Shown here piece by piece: positions 1,795 to 24,820 of a stretch of 35,604 bases of DNA. The DNA is from an uncultured Microbacteriaceae bacterium (GTDB taxonomy: Bacteria; Actinomycetota; Actinomycetes; Actinomycetales; Microbacteriaceae). The number at the start of each line of letters is the position of its first letter. The stretch's first letter is position 1. The stretch spans positions 1 through 35,604 of the forward strand of contig CALMSL010000138.1 in assembly GCA_937872445.1 (NCBI GenBank), given 5' to 3'. Below the pieces are notes generated by a model. That model saw nothing but the letters and a program-made list of their open reading frames with translations, had not been told where the DNA came from and did not search any database. Both the position numbers and the translations under genes were made by a program.

Positions 1795-1867
1795 GCCGGG
1801 ACGGCGCTCGGCGCTGGCGTCGCGGTGACGATCAGAAATGATCGTCACTCATAGCTCCAGCGCGCCA
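1795..1867 (+). repeat. AGAAAT-hairpin repeat, copy 1
   Basis: A 30-nt GC-rich left flank (1795-1824) is followed by a perfect 9-bp hairpin. The left arm is GTGACGATC (1825-1833), the loop AGAAAT (1834-1839) and the right arm its complement (1840-1848). A right flank containing AGCTCCAGCGCGCCA ends at 1867. The left flank matches the inverted copy near 8.8 kb at 29 of 30 positions. The repeat contains the maf stop codon and encodes the last residues of Maf. It could act as a terminator between maf and accA3, but there is no T-run. Confidence 0.85.
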
Positions 1868-2470
1868 GTGAACGCCGAACTCGCGCAGCAGCCCGCGCAG
1901 CGTCGAAAGCGACAGCCCGACGACGGTGTGCGGGTCGCCATGCACGGACGTGATGAACGGTGCCCCGAGCGAGTCGATCGTAAACGCGCCGGCCACGTGG
2001 AGCGGTTCGCCCGTCGCAATGTAGGCGTCGATTTCGGCATCCGTGATGTCCGCCGCGAAGCTCACGCTCGCGCTGGAGACGGCCCCCGCCGAGCCCTGCA
2101 CTCCGCCGCCGCGATGGTCGATGAGCCAGTGCCCGGAGTGCAGGGTCCCGGTTTTGCCGCGCTGCAGCATCCACCGTTCGCGCGCCACGGATGCCGTAAG
2201 CGGTTTGCCGTAGATCGTCCCGTCGAGCTCGAACACGGAGTCGCCGCCGAGGATGAAGCCGTCGATCGCCGGTCCGACGACCGCCTCCGCCTTCAGTCGT
2301 GCGAGCAAGTGCACCATCTCCTGCGCGGAGATCGACCCGGCGGCGGCCACCGCCGCATCCTCGTCCACTCCGGACGGCATGACCACGGGCTCAATCCCGG
2401 CCGAGCGCAGCGTCGCGAGCCTCGCCGGCGAAGTCGAGGCGAGGTACAGCCGCACCGCGGGTTCTGGCAC
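1832..2470 (-). CDS. maf: Maf family nucleotide pyrophosphatase
   Basis: Maf proteins are nucleoside-triphosphate pyrophosphatases that hydrolyse non-canonical or modified nucleotides; some are linked to division arrest. The N-terminal signature LYLASTSPARLATLRSAGI, a VDEDA segment and the ILGGDSVF and GKP motifs are visible. The GTG at 2470 is chosen because GGAG stands 8 nt upstream (TTTAGGAGCGGCAGTG) and the conserved domain begins right after it; the frame stays open further upstream but would overlap the divergent methyltransferase. This gives 212 aa, normal for the family. The tail (RAGAMSDDHF) is encoded by the hairpin repeat and is unlikely to be part of the fold. It lies upstream of accA3 on the same strand, a neighbourhood also seen in mycobacteria. 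Confidence 0.93.
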   Translation of the reverse strand: MPEPAVRLYLASTSPARLATLRSAGIEPVVMPSGVDEDAAVAAAGSISAQEMVHLLARLKAEAVVGPAIDGFILGGDSVFELDGTIYGKPLTASVARERWMLQRGKTGTLHSGHWLIDHRGGGVQGSAGAVSSASVSFAADITDAEIDAYIATGEPLHVAGAFTIDSLGAPFITSVHGDPHTVVGLSLSTLRGLLREFGVHWRAGAMSDDHF

Positions 2471-2479
2471 TGCCGCTCC

Positions 2480-2485
2480 TAAACT
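2480..2485 (+). promoter_or_regulatory. Candidate -10 box for leaderless methyltransferase mRNA
   Basis: TAAACT is followed by 6 nt and the ATG at 2492. A transcript starting about 7 nt after the box would begin at the ATG itself. It lies in the 21-bp gap between the divergent maf and methyltransferase starts. Confidence 0.5.
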
Positions 2486-2491
2486 GTGGGG

Positions 2492-3772
2492 ATGGGCGAT
2501 CATCTGGGCCAACTCATCGAGTTGGAGATTTCCAACGTAGCCCACGGCGGGGTGATGGTCGCCCGTCACGATGGTCGCGTCGTCTTCGTCTCGGATGCGA
2601 TCCCGGGTGAGACGGTGCGCGCCGTCGTCTCGGATGACTCAAAGGCGAAATTTTGGCGGGCGGACACGGTGGAGGTGCTCGCAGCATCCGAACATCGGCA
2701 GGAGCACGTCTGGTCTGCGGCGTCCATCGATCGGCGACCCGAGGACCGGGCGGGCGGTGCCGAGTTCGGCCACATCATCCCCGAACATCAGCGTGAATTG
2801 AAACGGCGCGTGCTTGCGGATGCGCTCGCCAGGATGGCAGGAATCGACTCGCCCGTGCACGTTGAGGCGATCCAGGGCCGTGTGGACGGCACCGGATGGC
2901 GCACGCGCGTCCGCCTGCACGCCGCGGAGGACGGCGCGCTCGGCCCGTATGCTGCGCGCTCGCACCGGGTCATCCCCGTGCGAGATTTGCCCCTCGCGAC
3001 CGATGCCGTGGCCGATGCCGCACCTCTGGGCGGGCGATTTAGCGGGCCGGTTGACCTCGTGTCTCCGTCGATCGGACCCGTCCTCGTGATCGACGATGAT
3101 CGGGAGCTGCCGCCCATCACCGAGCGGGTCGGCGAGCGCGAGTTCCGACTGGATGCGCGTGGATTCTGGCAGGTTCACGAAGCGGCGGCGCACACGCTCA
3201 GCCGGGCGGTGCAGGAGGCGATCCTGCCGGACCTGTTCGACCCGGATGCCCCGAACCTTGACCTGTATGGCGGCGTCGGGCTTCTTGCCGCGGCAGTGGG
3301 CGACCGTTTCGGCAGTGGACGTGGCAGCGGACGTGGCAGCGGCGGCAGTGGTGGCAGCGGCGGCGCGGGCGGTGCGGGCGGTGCGGGAGGCGGCATCCGC
3401 ATCACCACCGTGGAAAGTGACGCCCGTGCGACGGAGTTCGCGCGGGAGAACCTCGCGGACTGGCCTCGCGCACGTGCGGTGACCTCCCGCGTGGACCGAT
3501 ACCTCACTCGGCTTCGCGTCGACGGCCAGCGCCTGGATCGGGCCACCGTGGTCCTTGACCCGCCGAGATCGGGTGCGGGGAGGGGCGTGGTCAACGAACT
3601 GGCCGGATTGTCTCCCGCGCACATCATTTACGTAGCGTGCGACCCGGTCGCACTGGCGAGGGACATCGACCTCTTTGCGCAACAGGGTTACCTGCTGGAG
3701 GGGATCCGAGCGTTCGACCTGTTCCCGAACACGCACCACGTCGAAGCTGTTGCGAGCATCATGCGCGCCTAG
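2492..3772 (+). CDS. TRAM-domain RNA (uracil-5-)methyltransferase, RumA/TrmA type
   Basis: A SAM-dependent enzyme of the class that makes 5-methyluridine in tRNA or rRNA. An N-terminal TRAM-like beta-barrel (about residues 1-60) precedes the Rossmann methyltransferase. Visible motifs are FWQVHEAAA, the SAM loop LDLYGGVGLL, LDPPRSGAGRG, the catalytic-cysteine segment YVACDPVALARDI and the C-terminal FDLFPNTHHVEAVA. The [4Fe-4S] cysteine cluster of RumA is absent; the equivalent stretch reads ERAGGAEFGHI-like sequence (DRAGGAEFGHI), as in cluster-less relatives. A 28-residue tract of only Gly, Ser, Ala and Arg (residues 274-301) is inserted after the SAM loop. ATG 2492 is preferred over the in-frame GTG at 2486 because the TAAACT box is exactly 6 nt away. 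Which RNA position it modifies cannot be told from sequence. Confidence 0.9.
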   Translation: MGDHLGQLIELEISNVAHGGVMVARHDGRVVFVSDAIPGETVRAVVSDDSKAKFWRADTVEVLAASEHRQEHVWSAASIDRRPEDRAGGAEFGHIIPEHQRELKRRVLADALARMAGIDSPVHVEAIQGRVDGTGWRTRVRLHAAEDGALGPYAARSHRVIPVRDLPLATDAVADAAPLGGRFSGPVDLVSPSIGPVLVIDDDRELPPITERVGEREFRLDARGFWQVHEAAAHTLSRAVQEAILPDLFDPDAPNLDLYGGVGLLAAAVGDRFGSGRGSGRGSGGSGGSGGAGGAGGAGGGIRITTVESDARATEFARENLADWPRARAVTSRVDRYLTRLRVDGQRLDRATVVLDPPRSGAGRGVVNELAGLSPAHIIYVACDPVALARDIDLFAQQGYLLEGIRAFDLFPNTHHVEAVASIMRA

Positions 3773-3793
3773 CTGCGAGCTCCCAACTGGCAG

Positions 3794-5716
3794 TTACCAG
3801 CTACCGCCGCCGCCACCACCGCCGCCTCCGCCCCCGCCTCCGCCGCCGCCACCCGAGCCTCCGCTCGACGCAGGCGTGGACGAGAAGGACGACGTGGCCA
3901 TGCTCGTGAAACTGTTCACCGCGGAACCGATGGAGGAGATGGAGGCCACGGTGCCGGACAGATACCCGGCGTGGAATCCGGCGCTGCCCACATACCAGTC
4001 GGGGGCCGGCTGGGCCTTGCCCTGGGCCACAAGCTCGGCAAACACCCTCGACCAACGCTCCGCTTCACCGAACACCATCGCCCACGGCATGTAGCGGCTG
4101 AAAACGTCCTCATCCTCGTCGAAGCGGATGCGGTCGGCTTCCGCGGTCGCGATGTACTCCTTGAAACCGGCGAGTTGAACATAGACGGCGTGCCCGAGCG
4201 CGCTGCGCCGTGCGGCCTTCGAGGCGCGTCCGAGTGTCAGGAAGGATCCGGCCGCGAGACCGATCGGGATGAGCGCGAAAGTACCGCCGAACATGGACGC
4301 CAGCACGAACCCGCCAAAGCCGAGAAGCAAACCCCAGGAAATGAGCGGGTGCGTGGAGTTGATTTTGTCGATGAAGTAGCCTCGATGCTCAATCCAGGTG
4401 TCCAGTGTTTTCACGATCGCGCGCATGTCCGAGGCGAACTTGTTGGTCAGGGACGAGAGGGTGACGCTCGTGCGGTTGCCCCGAAACAACTTGCCGAGCA
4501 ACAGGGCCTCGTGCGGGAGAAGCTCTGCGGCATCCGGTCCGCCCGGGCGGGAGGCTGCCTTCTTCTGCGCCGCGCGCTCCGGGGTGGCGACGAGGGTGTA
4601 GTCCTTTGCCTTGCGCCGGTTCCCACCCTCGACCTCCTCGATGCGCAAGTGCCCGCGCACGGCCAAATCGATGAGGGTCGCCGTAATGTCGGCGTTCTTG
4701 CGCTTCTTCTCCAGTACGGTCCGTCCCGCTCCGACGGGAAGACCTTTCGGAGGCTGGTACTGCACGACGATCGTTTCGCCGCGGTCGGCGGGGCCGACTT
4801 CGGCGCTGCCGGGATCGTCGGGGATGCCGCCGGGTGTGACCCCGACGAACTTGCGGTCGCGCCGTCGCGCCACCACGAGCAGTTGGAACGCGGCGGGAAT
4901 GCCGAACAGCAGCGCGAGGCCGGTTCCCCAGTTCCACGGGCTCCAGAACGGGTCCGGACCGTCATTGGAGCCGCTCACGATCGGCGTGTAGTTGTAGGGC
5001 AGGCTCGGCTCGACGATGGGCGCGGTGCCGGTGAACGTTCCCTCCGGCCAGGCGACGTCGATCGTGAGTCCCTGTCGGCTGGACAGTCGGGTCGCCTGAA
5101 ACTGTGCGGACACGCCGTCCGTGCTGGCCAGTGCGCACGGATCCTTGGTCCCGTCGAATCCTGCGTAACATGCGACGGAGCGCGGTGGCGTCGGCCCCGT
5201 CACGGTGACGGTCGTACGTTCGATGGCCGGATCCCAGTAGCTGCCGGTCGCATTCCAGTAGAACTCGTCCAGGAAGGTCCCGTCCGGCTGTTGCGCCCGG
5301 TTGAGCGCGCCGTCGATGTCGTAGCGGATCACGTAGGTCTGCTTGCCGCTCACGTTGGCGTTCTTGTTGCCAATTCTGATCTGCAGGGCATTGCCGAGCC
5401 TCGTCGAGTACAGCGCGCTCGCCTCGGTCGGGCTGGACACGTCGGTGACCGTGTAGCGGTACACCCGGTCCTGTCCTGCGGTTGCGGTGGCGAAGCGGGA
5501 GGCCAGGTACCGGTCGATGCCGTGGCGATCCTCGGCTCCGGCGAAGTCGTAGTCGATGGTTTCGACAACATGAACGGTTCCGTCTGTCTCGACGGTGTAC
5601 TGGATGTCGAAGTTTCGGATGGTTTCCACCCCGGAACCGGATCCGCCGGTGCATCCGGCGAGGGCAAGAGCGGCGACCCCGGCGATGACGGCTATTTTCG
5701 CGATCCGTGGCGACAT
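3794..5716 (-). CDS. DUF2207 family membrane lipoprotein with poly-glycine tail
   Basis: A 640-residue membrane protein of the DUF2207 family; its role is unknown. The N-terminus is a lipoprotein signal peptide with lipobox LAGC (Cys22). A beta-rich extracytoplasmic domain (about residues 30-230) follows, including YTVETDGTVHVVETIDYDF. Then come a membrane segment near 255-280, a basic cytoplasmic region, two adjacent membrane helices near 460-495 and a cytoplasmic remainder. The C-terminus is a run of about 20 glycines closed by Ser-Trp, an ending also seen in other DUF2207 and TPM-domain proteins. The gene faces the methyltransferase tail-to-tail with 21 bp between stops. It is divergent from the response regulator operon, with a TAGAGT box 6 nt before its ATG. 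Confidence 0.88.
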   Translation of the reverse strand: MSPRIAKIAVIAGVAALALAGCTGGSGSGVETIRNFDIQYTVETDGTVHVVETIDYDFAGAEDRHGIDRYLASRFATATAGQDRVYRYTVTDVSSPTEASALYSTRLGNALQIRIGNKNANVSGKQTYVIRYDIDGALNRAQQPDGTFLDEFYWNATGSYWDPAIERTTVTVTGPTPPRSVACYAGFDGTKDPCALASTDGVSAQFQATRLSSRQGLTIDVAWPEGTFTGTAPIVEPSLPYNYTPIVSGSNDGPDPFWSPWNWGTGLALLFGIPAAFQLLVVARRRDRKFVGVTPGGIPDDPGSAEVGPADRGETIVVQYQPPKGLPVGAGRTVLEKKRKNADITATLIDLAVRGHLRIEEVEGGNRRKAKDYTLVATPERAAQKKAASRPGGPDAAELLPHEALLLGKLFRGNRTSVTLSSLTNKFASDMRAIVKTLDTWIEHRGYFIDKINSTHPLISWGLLLGFGGFVLASMFGGTFALIPIGLAAGSFLTLGRASKAARRSALGHAVYVQLAGFKEYIATAEADRIRFDEDEDVFSRYMPWAMVFGEAERWSRVFAELVAQGKAQPAPDWYVGSAGFHAGYLSGTVASISSIGSAVNSFTSMATSSFSSTPASSGGSGGGGGGGGGGGGGGGGGSW

Positions 5717-5722
5717 GTGCAG

Positions 5723-5728
5723 ACTCTA
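5723..5728 (-). promoter_or_regulatory. Candidate -10 box for leaderless DUF2207 mRNA
   Basis: TAGAGT on the minus strand, then 6 nt, then the ATG at 5716. No Shine-Dalgarno is visible in those 6 nt, so leaderless initiation is the simplest reading. Confidence 0.5.
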
Positions 5729-5789
5729 TCGGCTGTGGCGCGCACCGTGCCATTAAGCTGTTGGTGACACAGGGAACAGGATCGCTACC

Positions 5790-6494
5790 ATGCAACTCAC
5801 GGCAGAAAACGTAACCTCCGCCGAGGCGACGCATCAGGGTGTGAGGGTTGGTGTCGTCGACGATCACGAATCGGTGAGGCTCGGGCTGAAAGCCGCGTTC
5901 ATTGATGCCGGCTTCGATTTCATTCTCGCTGCGGCGTCGGTCGGGGAATTCGTCTCGAATCTTGACGGCAGGGAATGCGATGTGGTCGTTCTGGATCTGT
6001 CCCTGGGGGATGGTTCAACGGTTACGGAGAATGTGAAGTCCATTCAGGCCAGCGGGTGCGCTGTTCTCGTCCACAGCATCGCGGATCGCGTCGCGCTCGT
6101 GCGAGAAGCTCTCGCGGCGGGCGCCGCGGGTGTCATCCCCAAGTCCTCCGCGACGAAGACCGTGCTGTCCGCTGCGGCGACAGTTGCCAGAGGCGAAGTG
6201 TTGAACAACCTCGAATGGGCGAGCGCGATCGACGCGGACCGCGACTTTTCGAAGGCGCAGCTGGGGCGGCGGGAACGCGAAATCCTGCACCTGTATGCGT
6301 CGGGTTTGCCGTTGAAGCTTGCGGCGGAGAAGCTCGGCATCGGCTACGCGACGGCGCGCGAGTACCTCGACCGAATCCGGTTGAAGTACATCGAGGTGGG
6401 GCGGCCCGCCCCCACCAAGGTTGATCTTCTGCGTCGTGCGGTGGAGGACGGAATTCTTCCCGGACTCGATCCTGACGGCGGAGATGACGACTAA
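5790..6494 (+). CDS. Two-component response regulator, receiver + LuxR-type HTH
   Basis: A 234-residue DNA-binding response regulator. The receiver domain (about residues 18-130) has the acidic pair D24-D25 in VGVVDDHESVR, the phospho-acceptor D69 in VVVLDLSLGDGS and the conserved lysine K118 in GVIPKSS. The output domain (about 157-215) is a LuxR/NarL-like helix-turn-helix, with LGRREREILHLYASGLPLKLAAEKL cut short here: the helix pair is LAAEKLGIGYATAREYL. ATG 5790 has AGGA about 9 nt upstream. The kinase start overlaps its last 11 bp and a kinase-like membrane protein follows, so the three are surely co-transcribed. The operon is divergent from the DUF2207 gene, which is a candidate target. 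The inducing signal is unknown. Confidence 0.92.
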   Translation: MQLTAENVTSAEATHQGVRVGVVDDHESVRLGLKAAFIDAGFDFILAAASVGEFVSNLDGRECDVVVLDLSLGDGSTVTENVKSIQASGCAVLVHSIADRVALVREALAAGAAGVIPKSSATKTVLSAAATVARGEVLNNLEWASAIDADRDFSKAQLGRREREILHLYASGLPLKLAAEKLGIGYATAREYLDRIRLKYIEVGRPAPTKVDLLRRAVEDGILPGLDPDGGDDD

Positions 6495-7719
6495 CACCAC
6501 GACGTCGGTTCCGCCGAGTCTTCCACTGAGGCCGATCAGCCGTCCGCGGATGGAGGTGGTTGCCTCCCGGTCGGTCGCATTTTTTGGCCTGTTGTTCGGT
6601 GCGCAAACGTTTCCCGTCATGCTCGGCCAGGTGGGGCAACTCCAACCGGCCTGGTTCTGGGGTTACAACATCACCATTTTCGGCGGGCTGCTGCTGAGCG
6701 TTGTCGCTTCCCTGTCTCGACGGTTCGTCCGCATCGTGAATATTTGGATCGCGGCCGCCTATCTGGTGGCGATTGCGTCGTGGCCGCTGGCCGTTGTCGA
6801 TCCGTCGGCGATCGCGACCGGCCGCCCCTGGTTGTGGTTCCTGTGCACTGTGGCGACCGCGGCGGCGGCCATCGCCCTGTCGACGTGGGCCGCGACGGCA
6901 TACCTCGTGCTCGCGCCGTCGATTTACGGAATTGTTCGGCTCACACCGTCCGGCGGGGGTGCGTCGGCGGACCTTGCGGCTCTGGATGCGGTGTACGCGA
7001 TGCTGCTCGGCGGCGCCGTACTCATGATCATCACTCTCCTGCGCGGTGCCGCCGCTACCGTGGACGCCGCCCAGTCCGCCGCCCTTGCGCGCTACTCGGA
7101 TGCGGTTCGTCATCACGCGACGGAAGTCGAACGCGTTCAGGTTGATTCGATTGTCCACGACAGCGTGCTCACCACCCTGATTTCCGCTGCGCGGGCGTAT
7201 TCGCCGGAAGCGATGGTGTTGTCGGCGAAAATGGCCAGCAATGCGATCGGGCACCTCCGGGAGGCTGCCGCCGTTTCCCCTGACGATGAATCGATGGTGG
7301 CCGTCGATCAGGTGGCGGGAGGGATAGCGGCGGCCGCCGGGACGCTGTCGGCCCCTTTCGCGACGCGCGTCGTGGACGTGGGCGCTGGAACGATTCCCGT
7401 GCAGGTTGCCGAGGCGCTCTACTCCGCGTCAATCCAGGCGATGGTCAATAGCCTTCAGCACGCGGGCAGCGCGGATGGCGTGGAGCGCTGGCTGCGCATC
7501 ACCGGTTCCGGTGCCGAGGGCCTGGAGATTGAAATCGGCGACGATGGCGTCGGTTTCGATTCGAGTGACGTGCCGGCGGAACGGCTCGGGCTTCGAGTAT
7601 CCATCATGGAGCGGGTGGCAAATGCTGGCGGGCGCGTGTATGTCGCTTCCCGGCCGGGCGAGGGAACGGTGATCAGCATTGTCTGGCCCGATCCGGACAG
7701 TGAGGAGGATGACGACTGA
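6484..7719 (+). CDS. Membrane sensor histidine kinase
   Basis: The cognate kinase of the response regulator, 411 aa from ATG 6484. This start overlaps the regulator stop by 11 bp and removes an unlikely N-terminal extension encoded in the regulator gene. Roughly five to six membrane segments lie between residues 29 and 187. The dimerisation/phosphorylation helix reads VDSIVHDSVLTTLISAARA, giving H225 as the likely phospho-acceptor. A HATPase_c domain follows: N-box QAMVNSLQHA, G1 box DDGVGFD and GLRVSI near the end. There is no extracellular sensor domain of note, so sensing probably occurs in the membrane region. The stop overlaps the next start (TGATG). Confidence 0.9.
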   Translation: MTTNTTTSVPPSLPLRPISRPRMEVVASRSVAFFGLLFGAQTFPVMLGQVGQLQPAWFWGYNITIFGGLLLSVVASLSRRFVRIVNIWIAAAYLVAIASWPLAVVDPSAIATGRPWLWFLCTVATAAAAIALSTWAATAYLVLAPSIYGIVRLTPSGGGASADLAALDAVYAMLLGGAVLMIITLLRGAAATVDAAQSAALARYSDAVRHHATEVERVQVDSIVHDSVLTTLISAARAYSPEAMVLSAKMASNAIGHLREAAAVSPDDESMVAVDQVAGGIAAAAGTLSAPFATRVVDVGAGTIPVQVAEALYSASIQAMVNSLQHAGSADGVERWLRITGSGAEGLEIEIGDDGVGFDSSDVPAERLGLRVSIMERVANAGGRVYVASRPGEGTVISIVWPDPDSEEDDD

Positions 7720-8768
7720 TGGTCATCTCAATCCGGCGGTACATCATTGTCGCTCTTGCCGCGGTTTTTTCCGGCTACCACCTCCTGCTCGCGACCTACT
7801 CGTTCGATGTCCCTCGCGACAAGCTTCCGTATCTGGCGGCGATGGTGCTGTACGCCATCGCAACAGCGATAAGCCTGTGGCCGTCGAAGAACATTGCCAT
7901 GCCGATGTGGATGGCCAGTTTCAACGTGGCGGTGTGCATCGCGCTTCCGCTGCTCGTGACAGCGCAGCTTGACGTCCACGGGAGTGTGGGTTCGGATTAT
8001 TCGACCTGGTACCCCGCGGCGGTCGGGACGCTTATGGTCATCACGTCCACCCGCCGCCGGCACTTCTTCGCGTGGCTCGGGGTGGGGTTCCTGGCGGTTC
8101 AGACTGCGGTCTGGGCAGGATTCGGCGCTCTCGCAACTCTCGGCGTTGTGGGCAGCCTGGTCTGGGTTGCGGTGTCGCACGTCCTGTCCGTTTCGCTTGC
8201 GAGGATCGCCAGCGATGCACGGAAGTACGTGGAGGCGGAGCGGGAGGCCACCGCGTGGCAGGCCGCCCAGGAGGCGCACTTGTTCGAGCGCCAGTTCCGT
8301 CTGCGCCAAACCAATCGGATGGCCTTGCCGATGCTGCGTCAGATTGTTTCCAGTGAGGGGGATCTGACCGATGCGCAGCGCCGGGAGTGCGTGTACCTTG
8401 AGGCGGCGATCCGCGATGAGATCCGCGGGCGAAAGCTTCTGAACAGTCGAGTGCGGAACCAGGTGATGCGGGCGCGCCGTCGCGGCGCGATTGTGACGCT
8501 GCTCGACGAGGGTGGCCTTGACGACCTTTCCGATGCCGAACTTGACCGCGTGCTGGGCAGCCTGGCCGAAGCGTTGAAAAGTTCCACATCGGATCGGCTG
8601 ATCGCCCGCACGGTTCCGGAGGGTTCGGATGTCGCCGTGACGGTCGTGGGGCTCACCTCATCGGACGGCGGGAGCGCCAGTGCGCTCGGCCACGAGGGAG
8701 ACGATGACGACGATGATCAGGTCGAGTTGTGGCTGGAGATCCCGCGCGCTGGCGCGCTAGAGCTGTAA
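7719..8768 (+). CDS. Kinase-like polytopic membrane protein lacking catalytic motifs
   Basis: Function unknown. The 349-residue protein has about six membrane segments (roughly 9-27, 37-53, 62-81, 98-110, 117-135, 138-158). A helical linker (165-200) then leads into a cytoplasmic region of about 150 residues. The layout mirrors the kinase just upstream, but I see no phospho-acceptor HDxV/HExx motif, no N-box and no DxGxG ATP-binding motif. It may be a degenerate histidine kinase that partners or restrains the active one; that is inference. An acidic run (GHEGDDDDDDQVELWLEIP) precedes the tail, and the final residues come from the hairpin repeat. ATG 7719 overlaps the kinase stop by one base, with AGGAGG about 11 nt upstream, indicating translational coupling. 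Confidence 0.8.
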   Translation: MVISIRRYIIVALAAVFSGYHLLLATYSFDVPRDKLPYLAAMVLYAIATAISLWPSKNIAMPMWMASFNVAVCIALPLLVTAQLDVHGSVGSDYSTWYPAAVGTLMVITSTRRRHFFAWLGVGFLAVQTAVWAGFGALATLGVVGSLVWVAVSHVLSVSLARIASDARKYVEAEREATAWQAAQEAHLFERQFRLRQTNRMALPMLRQIVSSEGDLTDAQRRECVYLEAAIRDEIRGRKLLNSRVRNQVMRARRRGAIVTLLDEGGLDDLSDAELDRVLGSLAEALKSSTSDRLIARTVPEGSDVAVTVVGLTSSDGGSASALGHEGDDDDDDQVELWLEIPRAGALEL

Positions 8769-8854
8769 GCGACGGTCATTTCTGCGCGCTGGAGCTTTAA
8801 GCGACGGTCATTTCTGACCGTCGCTGCGACGCCAGCGCCGAGCGCCGTCCCGGC
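8753..8854 (-). repeat. AGAAAT-hairpin repeat, copy 2, with a 32-bp partial tandem duplication
   Basis: Inverted relative to copy 1. The perfect hairpin has arms 8801-8809 (GCGACGGTC on the plus strand) and 8816-8824, with loop 8810-8815 (AGAAAT on the minus strand). The flank 8825-8854 matches the copy 1 flank at 29 of 30 positions. The part holding the right flank and one hairpin arm is tandemly duplicated as 32-bp units, 8753-8784 and 8785-8816, which differ at two positions. The stop codon of the upstream gene lies in the first unit. Confidence 0.85.
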
Positions 8855-8891
8855 GTTCGGATCTTGCCCACCACGTCCGGGTGACAAAAGC

Positions 8892-8921
8892 GAAGGGCCG
8901 GAGAGTGTTCTCCGGCCCTTC
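8892..8921. terminator. Probable bidirectional terminator after the two-component operon
   Basis: A perfect 13-bp GC-rich stem has left arm GAAGGGCCGGAGA (8892-8904), loop GTGT and the complementary arm 8909-8921. CTTTAAG follows on the plus strand, and CGCTTTTG follows on the minus strand, which has a short T-run. It sits between the plus-strand kinase operon and the minus-strand acc genes. Confidence 0.7.
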
Positions 8922-8932
8922 CTTTAAGATTC

Positions 8933-8967
8933 GAGTCAGGGCGATAACCCGAATATCGCCCTGACTC
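8933..8967. other. Second strong hairpin, role unclear
   Basis: Perfect 13-bp arms GAGTCAGGGCGAT (8933-8945) and complement (8955-8967) enclose a 9-nt loop. It begins 11 bp after the preceding terminator stem and has no T-run. It could be a second terminator, a small-RNA stem or a recombination-site relic. Confidence 0.5.
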
Positions 8968-9280
8968 GCCCCCAAGTCATTAGCCCGCTTACCCTAGTCG
9001 GCCAATGATTGGTGTGTTGCTCTTAGAGAGGAACACCTAGCACTATCAATTGTGCGGGGCGTTCCCGCCAGGGCATAGTCGTCATTTTGGGGGACAGGTG
9101 GGGGACAATTCGGGAGTCGCATCCCCTGTTTCGCCCGGTATATCAACCGTGAGTGTATCAAAAACCTCCGCGCGCGGGGTACAGACTGGGCTTTTCGAGT
9201 GCCAATGTGCGTTTTCGCTGCGATTCCGTGCGAAATCGGGGGGAAACGCCACGGAACCACATCTGGCCGCGATCGGCGGC

Positions 9281-9315
9281 GCGGGTCGGTGAACCCGCGC
9301 CCCCAAAACGGGGGC
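9281..9315 (-). terminator. Tandem hairpins just after accE
   Basis: Two stems abut: GCGGGT with ACCCGC (9281-9286/9293-9298), and GCCCCC with GGGGGC (9299-9304/9310-9315). They begin 4 bp beyond the accE stop on the minus strand. There is no long T-run, so this is a candidate terminator only. Confidence 0.45.
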
Positions 9316-9318
9316 TGT

Positions 9319-9531
9319 TCAGGAGATGCTGCGCCAGCGAGTCAGTCCTCGAATCAACGGGGTACGAATCGGACGCTGGCTGAGCCGCCAGGCACTGGCC
9401 GCGCGCGCCTGCGCTCTGGCTTTTGTGCCCTCGATTTCCGCGGTCATCGCCTCGATCACGGACACGATGGCGGCGAGTTCGTCCGGCGTCGGGTTTCCCC
9501 TGACGACCCTGATCTCCTCGGCGCCGGTCAC
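9319..9531 (-). CDS. accE: Acyl-CoA carboxylase epsilon subunit
   Basis: A 70-residue protein with the epsilon-subunit pattern: [19 protein letters not shown] at residues 7-25, then a basic stretch ending in [14 protein letters not shown] and a Trp-rich C-terminus. In actinobacteria these small proteins stabilise and activate the alpha-beta carboxylase complex. The GTG at 9531 overlaps the beta-subunit stop (GTGA), so translation is probably coupled. It is the last gene of its transcript; candidate terminators follow. Confidence 0.88.
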
Positions 9532-11129: not shown

Positions 11130-11136
11130 GCCTGTC

Positions 11137-11142: not shown

Positions 11143-11145
11143 CCG

Positions 11146-15269: not shown

Positions 15270-15324
15270 TGACTTTCTCCTTCGTTGGATTTGGAATTTC
15301 TGAGCATCGTGCGGGTGGTGCCGG

Positions 15325-18382: not shown

Positions 18383-18389
18383 ATGCCGA

Positions 18390-19439
18390 TCACAGACCCA
18401 TCGCCCGGCGGCCCAGGGTTCCCAGCTTCGTGTGCCGCGCCGTATCACCGGACCCGACCCACAATTGGATGAACAAGGGTTGCCGCAAAAGGAAAAGTCC
18501 GATCGACAACATGATCCGAGGGCGCGGACGCAAATATCGAAGCAAACTTCGTGCCTCGCGCACGTACAGTCGCATTTTCGCCCTGTTCTTGTACCGGCCG
18601 GCGCGGACGTACATCTGAAGCCAGGTGCGGATGAACCGTGGTGCGATGAGGTCGCTTCGGTAGAACACCCCGCGCCACTTGTCGTTGGGGAATGCCTCGA
18701 TGAGCTTGCGGGAGTAAATCCTCAGCGACTCCTCCATCCGGTCTGAACCGCCCGAGGAGGTGGAGTGAATCCGCCACTGGGAGGTGGGTCTCTCGAGGAA
18801 GGCGTTATCGTAATTGGCGAGGAAAATCCGCAGAAAAAGATCGTCGTCCTCATAGCCGGACAGGCGCTCGTCAAAACCTCCAACATCCAGAATCGCCGCC
18901 CTGCTGATGAGCGTCGCGGACGGCTGGATGATGAATCCCTGGCGCAGCACTCTCTGCAAATCCCGCTTCGGGTTGTCAACGTCCATGTGCTCGATGAAAT
19001 TTCGAGCAACCATTCGGCCCTCGAGATCGATGTCGTCGAAATCGCTGTATACCCAGCCGAGCCGGAGACCGCGGTGGCCCTGAATCAGGTTGATCAGGTC
19101 TTCGATGTGGTTCGGGTACCAGATGTCGTCCTGGTCGATGAGTGCGATCCACTCGCTGGTGCAGAGTGAAATCGCGTGGTTTCGCGCTGCCGACTGGCCC
19201 GCATTGGGTTGACGGACGAGACGGATCTGCGGGTGTTCACTCGCAAATTCCTGAACAATCCCGACGCCATCATCAGTGGAGCCGTCGTCGATGACGATGA
19301 GCTCGTCGGGAGGGACGGTTTGCTCGAGAATGCTGCGGATGCTCTGCTCTATCCATGGCCGCCCGTTATATAGCGGGAGTATGGCGGCGACGGTGACTTT
19401 CACGGCGGAGGGTCTTGCCGGGTCGGGTTCGCCAGCCAT
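18390..19439 (-). CDS. Family 2 glycosyltransferase
   Basis: A GT-A fold sugar transferase, 349 aa. It opens with VAAILPLYNGRPWIEQSI, has the nucleotide-sugar aspartates in VIDDGSTDDG, the donor site QDDIW and an acceptor-side acidic motif YEDDDLFLRIF. ATG 19439 is preferred over 19448 because AAAGG is 9 nt upstream of the former but abuts the latter. The C-terminal 60 residues are basic and hydrophobic and may touch the membrane. It is the first gene of the exporter operon. Sugar specificity is unknown; cytoplasmic assembly of an exported polymer is the likely role. Base composition of this operon seems lower in GC than its neighbours. Confidence 0.88.
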   Translation of the reverse strand: MAGEPDPARPSAVKVTVAAILPLYNGRPWIEQSIRSILEQTVPPDELIVIDDGSTDDGVGIVQEFASEHPQIRLVRQPNAGQSAARNHAISLCTSEWIALIDQDDIWYPNHIEDLINLIQGHRGLRLGWVYSDFDDIDLEGRMVARNFIEHMDVDNPKRDLQRVLRQGFIIQPSATLISRAAILDVGGFDERLSGYEDDDLFLRIFLANYDNAFLERPTSQWRIHSTSSGGSDRMEESLRIYSRKLIEAFPNDKWRGVFYRSDLIAPRFIRTWLQMYVRAGRYKNRAKMRLYVREARSLLRYLRPRPRIMLSIGLFLLRQPLFIQLWVGSGDTARHTKLGTLGRRAMGL

Positions 19440-19488
19440 GGAGGTCATCCTTTGAGGGGTACCGGGCGGTCCGCCGGGTGAGGTCAGA

Positions 19489-19515
19489 AGTGTAGCGCAC
19501 CGGCAATTTGGTCAA
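19489..19515 (-). promoter_or_regulatory. Candidate promoter of the glycosyltransferase-Wzm-Wzt operon
   Basis: On the minus strand TTGACC (19510-19515) and TACACT (19489-19494) are separated by 15 bp, which is short but usable. It lies about 50 nt upstream of the glycosyltransferase start. Confidence 0.4.
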
Positions 19516-19540
19516 CAAGTGACTCAACGGGGAAACACCG

Positions 19541-19546
19541 TAACCT
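19541..19546 (+). promoter_or_regulatory. Candidate -10 box for leaderless birA mRNA
   Basis: TAACCT is followed by exactly 6 nt and the birA ATG at 19553. There is no Shine-Dalgarno. Confidence 0.5.
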
Positions 19547-19552
19547 TGGGCC

Positions 19553-20347
19553 ATGGAGTTTCCGCTCTCCGCAGAGCTGGCCGCGCGCGTCGTCGCGCTC
19601 GACGAAACAGACTCGACGAATGACGACCTGGTGGCGCTCGCAGCCGCCGGGCCGGTGGCGGAATTCACTGCCGTCGTGACGACGCGTCAGACGGCGGGAC
19701 GGGGCCGGCTGGGACGGGCGTGGGTTGCGCCGCCGGGCACGTCGCTCGCGGCGTCCGTGCTGCTGCGCCCTCAGGATGCGGACGTGCCGCTGGAGCGGTA
19801 CGGCTGGATTCCCCTCATCGCGGGGCTCGCAATGACGCGCGCGGTGCGCCAGCTGGTGCCAGACCGGCGGGTCGAGCTGAAGTGGCCCAACGATGTGCAG
19901 ATCGATGGGCGGAAGGTGTGCGGGGTTCTTTCCGAACTGCTTCCGGATGGTCGGGGCGTGGTGGTCGGGGCAGGGCTCAACCTCACGATTCCCGCCCAGG
20001 AGCTCCCGGTGCCCACCGCGACCTCCCTGTCGTTGAACGGTGCAACCGGATCGGCCGAGGTGCTCGCGGATCGCGCGCTCGCGGGCTACCTCGGCGAACT
20101 GCGGCGTCTGTGGGTCGCGTTCACAGCGGCGGGCTCCCGGGAGGCGACCGGCGGCATCCGCACCGAAGTGTCCGAGGCGTGCAGCACGCTCGGCCAGGTG
20201 GTGCGCGTCGACCTTCCGGACGGAACACGGCACCGCGGCACCGCCATCGACCTCGACGAGGCCGGCCGGTTGCGTATCAGTATCGGACCGAACGGCTCCC
20301 TGCAGACTGTCGCCGCCGGCGACATCACGCATCTGCGGTATGAATGA
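19553..20347 (+). CDS. birA: Biotin-[acetyl-CoA-carboxylase] ligase
   Basis: Activates biotin with ATP and attaches it to the carrier lysine of the carboxylase alpha subunit (K548 of the accA3 product here). The 264-residue protein has DETDSTNDDL, the biotin/AMP loop GRGRLGRAW (about 50-58) and KWPNDVQIDGRKVCGVL with the catalytic lysine. The small C-terminal domain is present. It lacks the N-terminal helix-turn-helix of E. coli BirA, so it is an enzyme only, not a repressor. It stands divergent from the polysaccharide exporter operon and 3 nt upstream of the PH-domain gene. Confidence 0.96.
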   Translation: MEFPLSAELAARVVALDETDSTNDDLVALAAAGPVAEFTAVVTTRQTAGRGRLGRAWVAPPGTSLAASVLLRPQDADVPLERYGWIPLIAGLAMTRAVRQLVPDRRVELKWPNDVQIDGRKVCGVLSELLPDGRGVVVGAGLNLTIPAQELPVPTATSLSLNGATGSAEVLADRALAGYLGELRRLWVAFTAAGSREATGGIRTEVSEACSTLGQVVRVDLPDGTRHRGTAIDLDEAGRLRISIGPNGSLQTVAAGDITHLRYE

Positions 20348-20350
20348 TGC

Positions 20351-20902
20351 ATGGCTCACCCGGTTCCCACTGGCGCGGCGCAGGAAGCTGAGCACCTCGT
20401 CGCCAGCCTGCACTCGCACGGACGAGCCCTGTTCTGGCCCACCATCGTTCTCGTCGGCTCCATCGGGGCCATGACGTACCTGTACGGCAATTTCCCGCTC
20501 GCGTGGCAGAACGTGGCGGTACTGGTCGCGGGCGGGTTGTTCATTCTGCTGTTGTGGCTGTTCCCCCTGCTCAGTTGGCTCGGTCGGCGCTACACGATCA
20601 CGACGCGCAGAATCGTCCTGCGCCGCGGATTCATCGTCCGCGTGCGTCAGGAACTCCTGCACAGTCGCGGGTACGACATCACGGTGCGCAAGAACGCGCT
20701 CCAAAGCATGTTCGGCAGCGGCGACGTTCGCATCAACACGGGCCTTGATCACCCGGTCGTTTTGAAGGATGTCCCAAACGCGGATCTCATCCAGAGCGCA
20801 CTGCATGACCTCATGGAGCGAAGCATCAACCCCATCGCTGCGCGCCGTCAGGCGGCGGAATCAAGCGCGCCGGACGAAGCGATCGTCTGGGAGGACGACT
20901 GA
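20351..20902 (+). CDS. Bacterial PH-domain membrane protein
   Basis: A 183-residue protein with two membrane helices (about residues 27-45 and 53-75). A bacterial pleckstrin-like domain of the DUF304/YdbS type follows; it starts RRYTITTRRIVLRRGFI and runs to about residue 155. The C-terminus is acidic. It starts 3 nt after birA and so shares its transcript. In M. tuberculosis a membrane protein of this kind also sits beside birA. The role is not known. It is convergent with the GtrA gene, 18 bp between stops. Confidence 0.88.
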   Translation: MAHPVPTGAAQEAEHLVASLHSHGRALFWPTIVLVGSIGAMTYLYGNFPLAWQNVAVLVAGGLFILLLWLFPLLSWLGRRYTITTRRIVLRRGFIVRVRQELLHSRGYDITVRKNALQSMFGSGDVRINTGLDHPVVLKDVPNADLIQSALHDLMERSINPIAARRQAAESSAPDEAIVWEDD

Positions 20903-20920
20903 GTTGCGTTTCGCCGCGAG

Positions 20921-21430
20921 TCAGTCGGCGGTGGGGACCGTGAGAATCGGCCCGGTCGACGTGCGGGGCGGGACCTTAACGTCGTCGGCTCTCGCCTCCG
21001 TCGGGACGGCGCGCGGACGGAACACCCACGACCGGTAAAGCCAGAAACGGAACACCGTGCCGAGTGCGAGCCCGATGATGTTCGAGGACACGTTGTCGGC
21101 AAGAATCGACGTGAAACCGAGGACGTAGTGGGAAATCCACAGGCAGGCCAGGCCGATTCCCATTCCGCCGACGCTCACGATCGCGAATTCGATTCCTTCC
21201 CGAATCGCCTGGGGTCGGCGATGCGACCCGAACGTCCAGTACCGGTTGCCGATCCAGTTCACGATGATCGCGATCGACGTCGAGACCACCTTCGCCCACA
21301 CCGGGCCGGCATGCATGTTCTCCGGGGAGAACAGCGTCACGCGCAGCAGGTTGAACACCGCGACATCCACGACGAAGCCCACGGCGCCGACCGCGCCGAA
21401 TCGCGCGAGTTGGGCGAAGAGGGCTTTCAC
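20921..21430 (-). CDS. GtrA family membrane protein (copy 1)
   Basis: A four-helix GtrA/DPMS-type protein, 169 aa, implicated in moving polyprenyl-phosphate-linked sugars across the membrane. Family sequence includes FGAVGAVGFVVDVAVFNLL, IVNWIGNRYWTF and ISHYVLGFTSILADN. GTG 21430 is chosen for its GGAG 6 nt upstream and because the family N-terminus begins there. It is divergent from purK. A second, related GtrA is at 29998-30522. The C-terminal 30 residues are polar and variable. Confidence 0.92.
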   Translation of the reverse strand: MKALFAQLARFGAVGAVGFVVDVAVFNLLRVTLFSPENMHAGPVWAKVVSTSIAIIVNWIGNRYWTFGSHRRPQAIREGIEFAIVSVGGMGIGLACLWISHYVLGFTSILADNVSSNIIGLALGTVFRFWLYRSWVFRPRAVPTEARADDVKVPPRTSTGPILTVPTAD

Positions 21431-21599
21431 GGTTTCTCCAGTTGCGGGGTTCGAAATGCGGTAGCCGTCAACCAGGCGGCGCCCGGGTGCGCGAAGATGG
21501 ACACGGGCGGTTCGCAGTCTAATCGTGCAAAGTCCGCAGGTAGCTGTGAACTCGGCAACGCGAACACAGTGCGGTGAACACGACGACGGGAGTGGAGTC

Positions 21600-22730
21600 A
21601 TGAGGGTAGGCGTCATCGGCGGCGGACAGCTTGCCCGCATGATGATCCCCGCCGCGATCAACCTCGGCATTGACCTGCGCGTTCTGGCGGAAAGCGAGGG
21701 GATGGCCGCTGACCTCGCGGCGACCGGCGTCGGCGATTACCGCGCGCTCGACGACGTTCTTCCGTTCGCCTCCGCGGTCGACGTGGTGACCTTCGACCAT
21801 GAGCACGTTCCGCAGTCGGTCCTTGGGGCACTCGTGGATGCCGGGGTTGCCGTGCGCCCCGGGCCGGATGCGCTGCAGTACGCGCAGGACAAGATTCTGA
21901 TGCGCCGGAAGCTCAGCGAACTGGGGATGCCGGTTCCGCGCTGGGCTGCCGTCTCCGACGCGTCGGAGTTGGCGGACTTCCTGGCCCAGAACGGCGGAGT
22001 GGCGGTCGTCAAGACGGCGCGGGGCGGCTACGACGGAAAGGGCGTTCGCGTGGTGCGTGCCGCGCACGAAGCGGACGACTGGTTCATGGCGCTCGCCGAG
22101 GACGCCAATGGCGGTTCGTTGCTCGCGGAGGAACTCGTGGACTTCCGTCGCGAGCTCGCCCAGTCCGTCGCCCGTCGCCCGTCTGGCGACGTCACAGCGT
22201 GGCCGGTCGTGGAGAGCATCCAGCGCGATGGGGTGTGCGCCGAGGTGATCGCCCCGGCGCCGTCCTCCGCGGGAAAACTCGCGCAGGTCGCCGCGGATGT
22301 CGCCACGGGAATCGCGGAGGGCCTCGGGGTCACCGGGGTGCTCGCGGTCGAATTGTTCGAGACGGTGGACGACCGTATCCTCGTGAACGAGCTCGCCATG
22401 CGGCCGCACAACTCGGGGCACTGGAGCATCGAAGGTTCGACCACGAGCCAGTTCGAGCAGCACTTGCGTGCCATCCTCGACCTGCCGCTCGGGGCCACCG
22501 GGTGCGTGTACCCGTGGACGGTCATGGTGAACATCCTCGGCGGCCCGACCCGTGGCACGCTGGCCGACCGCTACCGTCGCGTATTCGAGGACCATCCGAC
22601 GGCGAAGGTGCACAACTACGGGAAGGCGCCGCGGCCCGGCCGCAAGATCGGACACGTCACGGTATCCGGCGAAGACCTGGACGAGGTCGCCTACGACGCG
22701 CGCGCCGCAGCCGTGCAGCTGACCGACTGA
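21600..22730 (+). CDS. purK: N5-carboxyaminoimidazole ribonucleotide synthase
   Basis: Purine biosynthesis: ATP- and bicarbonate-dependent conversion of AIR to N5-CAIR. The 376-residue ATP-grasp protein opens with [15 protein letters not shown]. It has [32 protein letters not shown] (the ATP-binding loop) and [17 protein letters not shown], all strong PurK markers. ATG 21600 has GGGAG about 7 nt upstream; the open frame further upstream has no family sequence. purE follows 8 nt after the stop, so the two successive steps are made together. A 169-bp gap separates it from the divergent GtrA gene. Confidence 0.97.
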
Positions 22731-22738
22731 CGAATACC

Positions 22739-23242
22739 ATGGGTCACATGCCAAAACCGGTCGTCGCGGTCGTCATGGGCTCGGACTCCGACTGGAGCAT
22801 CATGAGCGAAGCGGCCGCAGTGCTCACGGAGTTCGGCGTGCCGCACGAAGTGGAGGTGCTCTCTGCGCACCGCACCCCGGACAAGATGATCGCGTGGGGC
22901 AAAGCCGCAGCCGGCCGTGGATTGCGCAGCATCATCGCGGGCGCGGGGGGTGCCGCCCACCTCCCAGGCATGCTCGCCTCGGTCACCACCCTCCCGGTGA
23001 TCGGCGTTCCGGTGCCGCTGGCCCGGCTCGACGGCCTGGACTCCCTGCTCTCCATCGTTCAGATGCCTGCGGGCGTCCCCGTGGCGACCGTTTCCATTGG
23101 CGGGGCACGAAATGCCGGGCTTCTGGCGATCCGGATGCTCGCCGCATCCGACCCGAAGCTGTCGGCCAGCCTCGAAGACTTTGCGAAGAGCCTTGAGGAT
23201 TCGGTCGCTGCGAAAAACGTCGCACTCAAGTCGACACTGTGA
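22739..23242 (+). CDS. purE: N5-carboxyaminoimidazole ribonucleotide mutase
   Basis: Converts N5-CAIR to CAIR, directly following PurK in the purine pathway. The 167-residue protein has [10 protein letters not shown], the active-site SAHRTPDKM and the PurE loop [12 protein letters not shown]. Length fits class I PurE. The ATG at 22739 is taken; a second ATG at 22748 is equally possible as neither has a good ribosome site. Its stop overlaps the LCP start (GTGA), so a wall-assembly gene is translationally joined to purine synthesis genes. Confidence 0.96.
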
Positions 23243-24582
23243 GCGCCGCCAGTTCCATCCGAGTGCCCGACGCCTCCTCGCCCGAGGCGATGCGCAGGCG
23301 CGCCTGGTGGCTCGTGGCACTCAACCTGCTGATTCCGGGTTCCGCGCAGCTTCTGGCCGGAAACCGTCGATTGGGTAAGTTCGGGGTTGTCACCACGTTC
23401 GTGCTGTGGGGGCTGGCGCTGGTGCTGCTGTTGCTGTACCTGGTCTGGCCGGTGGCCGTGTATTCGATCGCCGCCAACCCGTTGGTGCTCGGCGTGGCGC
23501 AAGTCGCGCTCGTGGTCTATGCGGTGCTGTGGGTGGTGTTCACCCTGGACACGCTGAGGCTCGTGCGGCTGATCCGGGTCCGGCCGATTGCACGAGGGTT
23601 CGTGGCGGGGATCGCGATCGCCGGTCTCGTACTCACGGCAGGGCTGTCCAGCTACGGTGCGATGATGGCCGGGTCGGCGCGTTCCGCCATCACCACAATT
23701 TTCGACAGCAGCGAATACACTCCGCCGGTGAACGGCCGCTACAACATCCTGCTGCTGGGCGGGGATGCGGGGCCCGACCGCGAGGGGTTGCGGCCGGACA
23801 GCCTGTCCCTGGCCAGTGTCGATGCCCAGACCGGAGCCACCGTGCTCGTAGGTATCCCGCGCAACCTGGAGCAAGTGCGTTTCTCGGCCGGGTCGCCGTT
23901 GTACGGCCCATTTCCGAACGGCTACGACTGCGGGGATAACTGCCTCATCGACTACCTGTACACCTACGGTCAGGAGCATCCGGACCTGTACCCGGACGCC
24001 GCGAAGCACGGGTCGAGCCCCGGCATTGAGGCGATGCGGGACTCCGTCGAGGGTGTTCTCGGGATCACGATCCAATACTTTGTGCTCATCGACATGCAGG
24101 GTTTCTCGGATCTCGTCAACGCGCTCGGCGGTATCACGCTCAACGTCCCGGAGCGGACACCGCTTGCGGCGGCGATTCCGGGCGCGGAACCGTTTGCCTG
24201 GGTCGAAGCCGGAAAGCAGCACCTGGACGGGAACACGGCGCTCTGGTACGCGCGGTCACGCTACGAGAGCACCGATTTCGCCCGGATGTCCCGCCAGCGC
24301 GACGTGCAGGAAGCGATCCTGCGCGAATTCACTCCCGCCAATGTGCTGCTCAAGTTCCAGCAGGTTGCCGAGGCGGGAAAGGAAGTGGTGAAGACGAACA
24401 TTCCGTCCGTCATGCTTGGGCTCTTCGTCGATCTGGGCTCGAAGGCCAAAAAACTTCCCGTGACCCGGCTCGAACTCGTGCCACCGGAGTTCCCGCCCGG
24501 CAACCCTGATTACGACAAGATTGCCGCCGCGTTCGCGAAGACGATTGCCGCGGAAACGCCGTCGCCCACCCCCGCTCCCTGA
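23239..24582 (+). CDS. LytR-CpsA-Psr (LCP) family cell-wall glycopolymer ligase
   Basis: LCP enzymes transfer lipid-linked glycopolymers onto peptidoglycan outside the membrane. The 447-residue protein has four hydrophobic helices (about 22-40, 49-70, 81-102, 120-138), more than the single anchor of simple LCP proteins. The LCP domain spans about 165-360. Key residues are seen in [29 protein letters not shown] and the C-terminal arginine motif [20 protein letters not shown] Cys pair in [11 protein letters not shown] may form a disulphide. GTG 23239 overlaps the purE stop. Its own stop codon lies in the first base pairs of a repeat array. Partners are likely the rhamnose and glycosyltransferase genes downstream. 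Confidence 0.93.
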
Positions 24583-24587
24583 GTGCC

Positions 24588-24820
24588 GTTCCCTGAGGTG
24601 CGAGTGAAGTGAATCGTTCCCGTTCCCTGAGGTGCGAGTGCAGCGAGCCGTACCCGTTCCCTGAGGTGCGAGCGGAGCGAGCCTCGAAGGGAACCGACCA
24701 GTGACTGCGTTGCTCCCTTCGAGACGGCCGCTGGCCGGCGAGACGCCGGCCAGCGCTGGCGGCGCGTGAAGGCCAGAAATGGCCTTCACCCCTATGCGCC
24801 GCGCGCTCCTCAGGGAGCGG
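24588..24820. repeat. 34-bp tandem array I plus palindromic block, with hairpin insert
   Basis: Three units starting GTTCCCTGAGGTGCGAG begin at 24588, 24622 and 24656, a strict 34-bp period. The third continues into an inverted block (CCTCGAAGGGAA, later CTCCCTTCGAGACG, then GCGCTCCTCAGGGAGCGG at 24803-24820). The region 24656-24726 matches 24899-24969 in array II at 70 of 71 positions. Between 24727 and 24802 it carries an AGAAAT hairpin that array II lacks. The same core, CTCCCTGAG, already overlaps the LCP stop codon at 24580-24582. Confidence 0.85.
24766..24789 (+). repeat. AGAAAT-hairpin repeat, copy 3
   Basis: A perfect 9-bp hairpin: left arm GTGAAGGCC (24766-24774), loop AGAAAT (24775-24780) and complementary right arm (24781-24789). 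The flank GCTGGCGGCGC resembles the GCTGGCGTCGC of copies 1 and 2. The long left flank is not otherwise conserved. It sits inside array I. Confidence 0.8.

What the first reader, a model, noticed from the sequence alone, without database searches (positions are those of the whole stretch)
1795..24789. Dispersed hairpin family with constant AGAAAT loop and compensated stem changes
Three perfect 9-bp hairpins share loop AGAAAT but have different arms: GTGACGATC (1825), GCGACGGTC (8816-8824, minus strand) and GTGAAGGCC (24766). Differences at arm positions 2, 5, 7 and 8 are each matched on the opposite arm. Flanks GCTGGCGTCGC or GCTGGCGGCGC recur. All lie at or beyond the 3' ends of genes. Pairing kept through base change suggests the structure itself is maintained, as in REP-type elements or terminators. 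I do not recognise this family.
Basis: seen in the sequence. Interest (0 to 1): 0.7.

Follow-up and report, generated by a model that had tools for sequence, protein, structure and literature searches.

The report
Mobile two-hairpin repeats, paired stems vary
The three hairpins are copies of an 80-base folding DNA repeat that has inserted itself at many places in genomes of one bacterial family, keeping its fold while its stem letters change in matched pairs, although almost none of the genomes checked carry the enzyme known to move such repeats elsewhere.

Summary
The three hairpins have 10- or 11-bp arms around a GAAA loop. Each is half of an ~80-bp element: hairpin A (9-bp arms, loop GRGAC), then a short outer stem around the GAAA hairpin. 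The genome has 14 covariance-model matches; 66 of 299 sampled genomes of its family have one or more, and a class-wide sample gave 2 of 296, both of that family. Pairing is kept through change: 13 of 25 pairs changed on both sides, 107 cells against 22 in shuffles. Sites without the element in relatives show insertion. No target duplication, no replication-strand bias, no G-T excess over A-C mismatches and even orientation to genes speak against a strand-specific RNA or terminator. The RAYT-type transposase is absent from the host and found in 3 of 299 family genomes. Best reading: a RAYT-less, REP-like non-autonomous palindromic element, a new variant of a known kind, moved by an unidentified activity. 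The genome also carries a second palindrome family with highly variable, self-paired cores.

The parts
1786..1869 (+). element copy 1 (whole model match, 94.7 bits)
   Evidence: no copy at this site in seven relatives
1789..1811 (+). copy 1 hairpin A: arms 1789-1797 / 1803-1811, loop GGGAC 1798-1802 (one mismatch, one G-T)
1812..1864 (+). copy 1 outer stem: 1812-1817 with 1857-1859 and 1862-1864, bulge GC 1860-1861
1825..1848 (+). copy 1 inner hairpin: 10-bp arms, loop GAAA; contains the stop codon (1832-1834) of the Maf gene on the minus strand
8780..8863 (-). element copy 2 (99.5 bits)
   Evidence: present in G075 and G190, absent in G299
8800..8825 (-). copy 2 inner hairpin: 11-bp arms, loop GAAA
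8838..8860 (-). copy 2 hairpin A: arms 8860-8852 / 8846-8838, loop GGGAC
8752..8783 (-). truncated direct duplicate of the right part of copy 2 (32-bp unit); holds the TAA (8766-8768) that ends gene 7719-8768
24728..24810 (+). element copy 3 (66.3 bits), variant with GCTGGCGGCGC left strand
24729..24755 (+). copy 3 hairpin A: up to 12 bp around GAGAC/AGA
24766..24789 (+). copy 3 inner hairpin: 10-bp arms, loop GAAA
24715..24727 (+). left half of a second palindrome family (CCCTTCGAGACGG) that encloses copy 3
   Evidence: read; family counted
24806..24821 (+). right half of the enclosing second family (CTCCTCAGGGAGCGGG)
   Evidence: read; family counted

Best explanation
The hairpins are copies of a non-autonomous, REP-like palindromic insertion element of about 80 bp. 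Shown: it has two adjacent hairpins with nearly fixed loops (GRGAC, GAAA) and stems whose letters vary in matched pairs; it occurs in 1 to 56 model matches per positive genome, in a patchy way across one family; sites without it exist in close relatives; it has no target duplication, lies in either orientation, is enriched next to gene 3' ends, sits in some cases inside other palindromes and in a few cases in frame inside genes. Inferred: an enzyme supplied in trans recognises the folded DNA by its loops, bulge and fixed base pairs, so that only well-paired copies spread; after insertion copies decay. The enzyme is not a Y1 (RAYT/IS200) transposase of the host and was not identified. A side effect as an mRNA 3'-end or intercistronic hairpin is possible but not shown.
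For: Covariation: 97.4% of 1124 cells paired, 13 of 25 pairs with two-sided change, 107 such cells against 22.3 (sd 3.7) in shuffles (45 rows, given out of 77 references prepared). 138 distinct copies of 70 bases or more (from 168 model matches): loop GAAA in 129 of 135 parsed, loop GAGAC or GGGAC in 124 of 136 parsed; GAAA is kept in all 9 copies whose closing pair is C-G. Model matches 14, 17, 10, 7, 13, 1, 0 in seven genomes of the genus and 14 to 56 in ten others, one of them of the genus (three of the 31 in G009 are repeats at contig ends). Sites without the element: copy 1 in seven relatives, with flanks matching up to the edges in G075 and G190; copy 2 in G299, flanks side by side; the G075 copy L202 in G000, G190 and G236, though G299 has a decayed copy there. 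One weak direct-repeat signal among all k-mer and offset tests in 95 canonical copies. 38 convergent, 61 tandem, 9 divergent of 108 placed copies, against intergenic bases of 17%, 56% and 27% in the same loci. A gene 3' end lies within -25 to +6 nt of an edge in 35 of 95 canonical copies against 17% of 5340 random placements. Nested in other palindromes: window copy 3, L039, L218 and third-family sequence at an edge in 11 of 16 fetched G282 copies.
Against: No mobilising gene was found: 557 predicted proteins within 3 kb of copies at 120 loci show no recurrent transposase among the 25 largest clusters (read by eye). Transposition was not observed; some absences may be deletions, and the G299 site keeps a GCGCGCTGG like the element's end. 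At two shared sites of more distant relatives compensated changes occurred with no one-sided ones in the two hairpin stems (L049/L075, L022/L205), which fits in-place maintenance of pairing as well. Pairs that share both flanks have 122 one-sided and 234 two-sided differences in 67 pairs, but many of these are separate insertions in one gene gap. Enrichment at gene 3' ends may only reflect where insertions are harmless.
Confidence: 0.72

Rival explanations
1. A functional RNA: a transcribed 3'-end or intercistronic hairpin (terminator, processing or stability element) kept by selection at each site.
For: Strong covariation; GAAA is a GNRA loop and GRGAC could be a GNRA-like pentaloop (recalled); positions after stop codons; copies in the rpsG-fusA and rpsK-rpoA gaps of several genera (genes named by eye, S12 beside them by Pfam); L049/L075 share a site and differ in their hairpin stems by two two-sided transitions only.
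Against: G-T mismatches 19 against A-C 29 among 2574 stem cells, so no wobble excess on the element strand; tandem-gene orientation 32 same to 29 opposite; no T run in 45 aligned copies; junctions at rpsG differ between genera, so those are separate insertions; the close pairs L188/L207 and L211/L219 have 5 one-sided and 0 two-sided changes; no Rfam match at gathering scores, only six below them at E 0.5 to 8.8.
Confidence: 0.13
2. A GTAG-type REP moved by a RAYT (Y1 tyrosine transposase).
For: Same genomic habits: extragenic, near stop codons, stop codons supplied by the element, palindromic, paired stem variation, no target duplication.
Against: PF01797 absent from the host and in 3 of 299 family genomes, of which only G011 is among the 66 with the element; no GTAG/GTGG at the hairpin foot (flank table); no replication-strand bias, 68 to 66.
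Confidence: 0.05
3. Stems are rewritten in pairs by hairpin-templated copying (template switching or foldback repair), and covariation reflects this mutational process rather than selection.
For: Within one genome copies differ by several paired changes in hairpin A while much of the rest is identical (G282, for example L259 and L263); 40 different four-base stem segments among 90 copies of one strict form; the second palindrome family has 32 different inner sequences in 51 copies with 191 of 204 scored positions paired; swaps such as GC to CG, which no wobble can bridge, are common.
Against: Close orthologous copies keep uncorrected one-sided mutations (alignments); the same pattern arises if only well-paired copies spread.
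Confidence: 0.1

Closest known systems
CGTC-tagged REPs (Di Nocera et al. 2013, PMC3733652; opening part and passages read)
   Same: Short palindromic repeats without a dedicated transposase; 4-base loops in one family; mostly downstream of genes; sometimes inside genes, including DNA repair genes; sometimes inserted inside other palindromes; here too an unpaired CGTC often stands near the inner hairpin and a CCA follows it.
   Different: Two hairpins instead of one; CGTC not fixed and three bases away from the stem; stem does not start with two A-T pairs; the paper names five phyla for CGTC repeats, none of them Actinobacteria (word not found in its main text).
GTAG REPs / REPINs with RAYT (PMC3116915 and PMC6006769, passages read)
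   Same: Dispersed palindromes with compensated stem changes; REP ends that give stop codons to neighbouring genes (passage of PMC3733652).
   Different: RAYT almost absent from the hosts, no GT[AG]G foot, two unlike hairpins in fixed order rather than inverted doublets of one REP.
Rickettsia palindromic elements (mentioned in PMC3733652)
   Same: Palindromic repeats that can insert in frame inside genes.
   Different: Other sequence and host; here mostly outside genes.
MITEs such as RUP, NEMIS, ERIC (as described in PMC3733652)
   Same: Small, non-coding, able to fold.
   Different: No terminal inverted repeats or target duplication seen here.

Membership tests
GTAG REP / REPIN-RAYT | dispersed extragenic palindrome with paired stem changes | tested here: met
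GTAG REP / REPIN-RAYT | GT[AG]G tetranucleotide at the 5' foot of the hairpin | tested here: not met
   left flank of 95 canonical copies has no such motif; only position -2 avoids C, 1 of 95
GTAG REP / REPIN-RAYT | RAYT (Y1_Tnp) gene in the host, flanked by the repeats | tested here: not met
   0 in own genome, 3 of 299 family genomes
GTAG REP / REPIN-RAYT | two REPs in inverted orientation form the mobile unit | not tested
   tandem direct copies seen in some loci (L057, L082, L205); inverted pairs not counted
CGTC REP | unpaired CGTC at one end, next to the stem | tested here: inconclusive
   CGTC after TGG in 25 of 54 copies not chosen by a CGTC pattern; the model was built from CGTC copies and some rows did not parse; it stands three bases from the inner stem
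CGTC REP | 8-9 bp stem that begins with two A-T pairs | tested here: not met
   10-bp stem, outermost pairs G-C 127 of 135 and C-G 115 of 135
CGTC REP | no dedicated transposase beside the repeats | tested here: met
   (25 largest clusters read by eye); Y1 also absent
MITE | target-site duplication | tested here: not met
   one weak signal (3 of 95 copies) among all k-mer and offset tests
MITE | terminal inverted repeats | tested here: not met
   consensus ends CCG.. and ..CCAGCGCGC are not inverted copies of each other; no inverted signal in the flanks
intrinsic terminator | hairpin followed by a T run, in the sense of the upstream gene | tested here: not met
   no T run in 45 aligned copies; orientation 32 to 29
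known structured RNA (Rfam) | match to a family at its gathering score | tested here: not met
   0 matches in the window

The most novel reading that the evidence does not exclude
Microbacteriaceae carry a set of mobile palindromes (this element and at least one more family in the same genome) in which an activity other than a Y1 transposase recognises loops, bulges and fixed pairs of folded DNA, while the stems between them are re-drawn as self-complementary sequence as copies arise. That would be a mode of spread that I do not know from REPs or MITEs.
Probability: 0.2. Interest if true: 0.7.

Novelty: new variant of a known kind. Interest (0 to 1): 0.47.

Why it matters
GTAG-type REPs are thought to be moved by RAYT transposases; here a bacterial family carries mobile, structure-conserved palindromes almost without such genes. 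The empty sites, the range from 0 to 56 copies within one genus and the paired variation of stems make the question of how RAYT-less REPs move open to direct test.

Tried and rejected
Rejected: RAYT linkage; insertion into one replication strand as for IS200-like elements (68 to 66 in ten genomes; tandem neighbours merged; the chromosome length was rounded or guessed for six of the ten, and taken from the repeated contig ends for G009; the terminus was taken as opposite dnaA; G016 and G074 were left out because split in contigs); target duplication; a linked transposase; strand-specific RNA by wobble excess; phage or plasmid carriage (exact pattern in viral contigs 0; blastn with copy 1 in plasmids and phages no match). 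Class-wide scan: 2 of 296 genomes, the window's own and one more of its family; the listing does not say how many of the 296 are from other families. Literature: nine searches; none listed a paper that by title or abstract describes such repeats in Microbacteriaceae; only the held open library was searched.

The reading that same-site copies always decay without compensation was dropped: (67 pairs sharing both flanks, 122 one-sided and 234 two-sided differences, against 1.3 and 4.6 per unrelated pair; separate insertions in the same gap; 11 same-junction rows, some of them repeats of one locus, mixed result). Of nine G000/G075 pairs the script aligned six; three had no AGAAAT core. The first flank script parsed 5 of 138 copies (only its intergenic table is used) and was redone (95 of 138; the other 43 lacked the canonical ends).

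Full report
What is there. The three hairpins exist as described. With the A-T pair at the loop ends the arms are 10 bp (11 in copy 2) and the loop is GAAA. The window is one whole contig of a 3.06-Mb draft genome; CAGAAATG occurs 39 times in that genome. Eight of these sites have 8 or more paired arm bases, and they and a ninth (L012, mismatched) share a longer layout. The layout, 5' to 3': hairpin A with 9-bp arms and loop GRGAC; directly after it an outer stem (NNC-TGG ... CCA-GC-GNN, with a two-base bulge) that encloses, across an internal loop, the 10-bp inner hairpin with loop GAAA. A few copies have quite different outer stems that still pair, for example L011, L022, L065.

Is it more than chance? 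In 45 aligned copies (of 77 references prepared) 97.4% of 1124 cells pair; 13 of 25 pairs show a change on both sides; such cells number 107 against 22.3 (sd 3.7) when the 3' letters are shuffled, and sliding the partner by one to three columns drops pairing to 32-47%. Forty of the rows came from hits to a pattern that fixed TGGCGTCGC and part of the inner stem, so conservation of those letters is biased; hairpin A was not in the pattern and has 6 of 9 pairs with two-sided change.

Distribution. The pattern scan of named genomes gave 73 stretches. Titles that name a genus name Microbacteriaceae as far as I know; I looked up Terrimesophilobacter, Ruicaihuangia, Protaetiibacter, Amnibacterium, Subtercola and Galbitalea and all six are in that family. 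Other titles are unplaced Actinomycetota, Actinomycetales or Micrococcales bins, and one contig is titled Parvibaculum, which I suspect is misplaced. The covariance model R1 hits 66 of 299 genomes and 30 of 85 genera of the window's family (at most 15 candidates scored per genome) and 2 of 296 across the class, both of that family. With 150 candidates scored per genome the counts are, in the genus, 14 (own), 17, 10, 7, 13, 1, 0 and 56 (G276). One genus member, G190, has a contig of the same length (2,413,888) as the Terrimesophilobacter mesophilus DSM 19267 record, so the genus is probably that one.

It inserts. Copy 1 is missing in the aligned regions of all seven relatives compared, and the model finds nothing at that place in them; in G075 and G190 the flanks match up to window 1777 or 1767 and again from 1861, in the others the gap itself is diverged. 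Copy 2 is present in G075 and G190 and missing in G299, where the flanks match window 8754 and 8878 side by side. A G075 copy (L202) is missing in G000, G190 and G236; G299 has a decayed copy there. At other G075 sites the own genome holds members of a different palindrome family instead (L239, L241, L246). At copy 2 the repeat ends a reading frame: by eye, G299 reads on to another stop. In 95 canonical copies there is no clear direct repeat at the edges; position -2 is C in 1 of 95.

Where it sits. With a home-made gene caller, 138 distinct copies gave 38 convergent, 61 tandem, 9 divergent, 13 inside predicted genes, 10 far from genes, 7 at contig edges; tandem orientations were 32 and 29. 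A gene 3' end lies at the edge in 35 of 95 canonical copies against 17% of random placements; 18 of the 95 had no gene end in range. Recurrent sites include the rpsG-fusA and rpsK-rpoA gaps; at the first, junctions differ between genera, so the gap was hit more than once.

What moves it. The REP transposase family PF01797 is absent here and found in 3 of 299 family genomes, one of them element-positive. Neighbouring proteins show no common transposase. Orientation to replication is even, 68 to 66 in ten genomes. So the shape and habits are those of REPs, but the known enzyme and its foot motif are missing.

RNA or DNA? An RNA kept by selection should show more G-U than A-C mismatches on its own strand; here there are 19 and 29. 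Orientation to genes is even. The GAAA loop is kept in all 9 copies whose closing pair is C-G instead of A-T, so the loop itself seems to matter. Single-stranded DNA folding energies of the window copies are 3.3 to 8.1 standard deviations below shuffles. Same-junction pairs are too few to decide whether pairing is also kept in place: L188/L207 and L211/L219 have five one-sided and no two-sided changes, four other close rows have none in the stems, L049/L075 has two two-sided and no one-sided, L022/L205 three two-sided of which one leaves a mismatch.

Comparison with the known. The nearest described group is the CGTC-tagged REPs, which also lack a transposase (PMC3733652, opening part and passages read). 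That paper reports frequent G-T pairing in stems, GTAG REP ends that give stop codons, REPs in DNA repair genes, and REPs inside other palindromes; the last three have likenesses here (stop codons; mfd; nesting), the first does not. The stem start and the position of CGTC do not fit, so I do not file it there. GTAG REPs/REPINs fail on RAYT and foot motif. I therefore call it a new variant of REP-like palindromes. Nine literature searches in the held library listed no earlier description in this bacterial family.

Noticed in passing
window 24959-24993; 64 pattern matches in the genome: A second palindrome family, CCTTCGAGACG..CTCAGGG: 64 exact pattern matches in G000, 23 in G075, 14 in G282, 1 in G190, 0 in G138 and G276; reversed control 0 in all six. 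Its inner hairpin is highly variable but self-paired: 32 distinct inner sequences among 51 typed G000 copies, 191 of 204 scored positions paired.
   Followed up: partly
L248-L263 (G282): A third palindrome family, GAGGTTTCGATAACGCC..CTACTCAACC; its sequence lies at one or both edges of 11 of 16 fetched G282 copies of the element, five of them (L253-L257) with the same junctions by eye, as if the composite had spread.
   Followed up: partly
L195, L198, L200 (298-380), L222; L246: The element lies inside a gene clustered as mfd in four congeners (L222 confirmed by Pfam domains), and in G000 a member of the second family sits at the same place.
   Followed up: partly
L091 6442-7605: Element read in frame between a TsaD-family domain and a GNAT domain, as if it joined tsaB and rimI; the antisense frame of the element is open (ALELGAKAISGLRRDASADGRLGRR).
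   Followed up: partly
L073, L104, L096, L124, L056: In 5 of 8 loci scanned a tRNA gene (Gly, Ala or Leu) begins or ends within 6 bases of the element's model end.
   Followed up: no
L011 and L224: At one site of two close relatives with 92-99% identical flanks a tandem array of hairpins is rearranged and carries different, again self-paired arms.
   Followed up: no
window 8892-8921 and 8932-8968: A 13-bp hairpin scored as terminator-like on the minus strand, followed by a 15-bp inverted repeat, just beyond copy 2.
   Followed up: no
L045: A contig titled Parvibaculum carries a typical copy; probably a misplaced contig.
   Followed up: no
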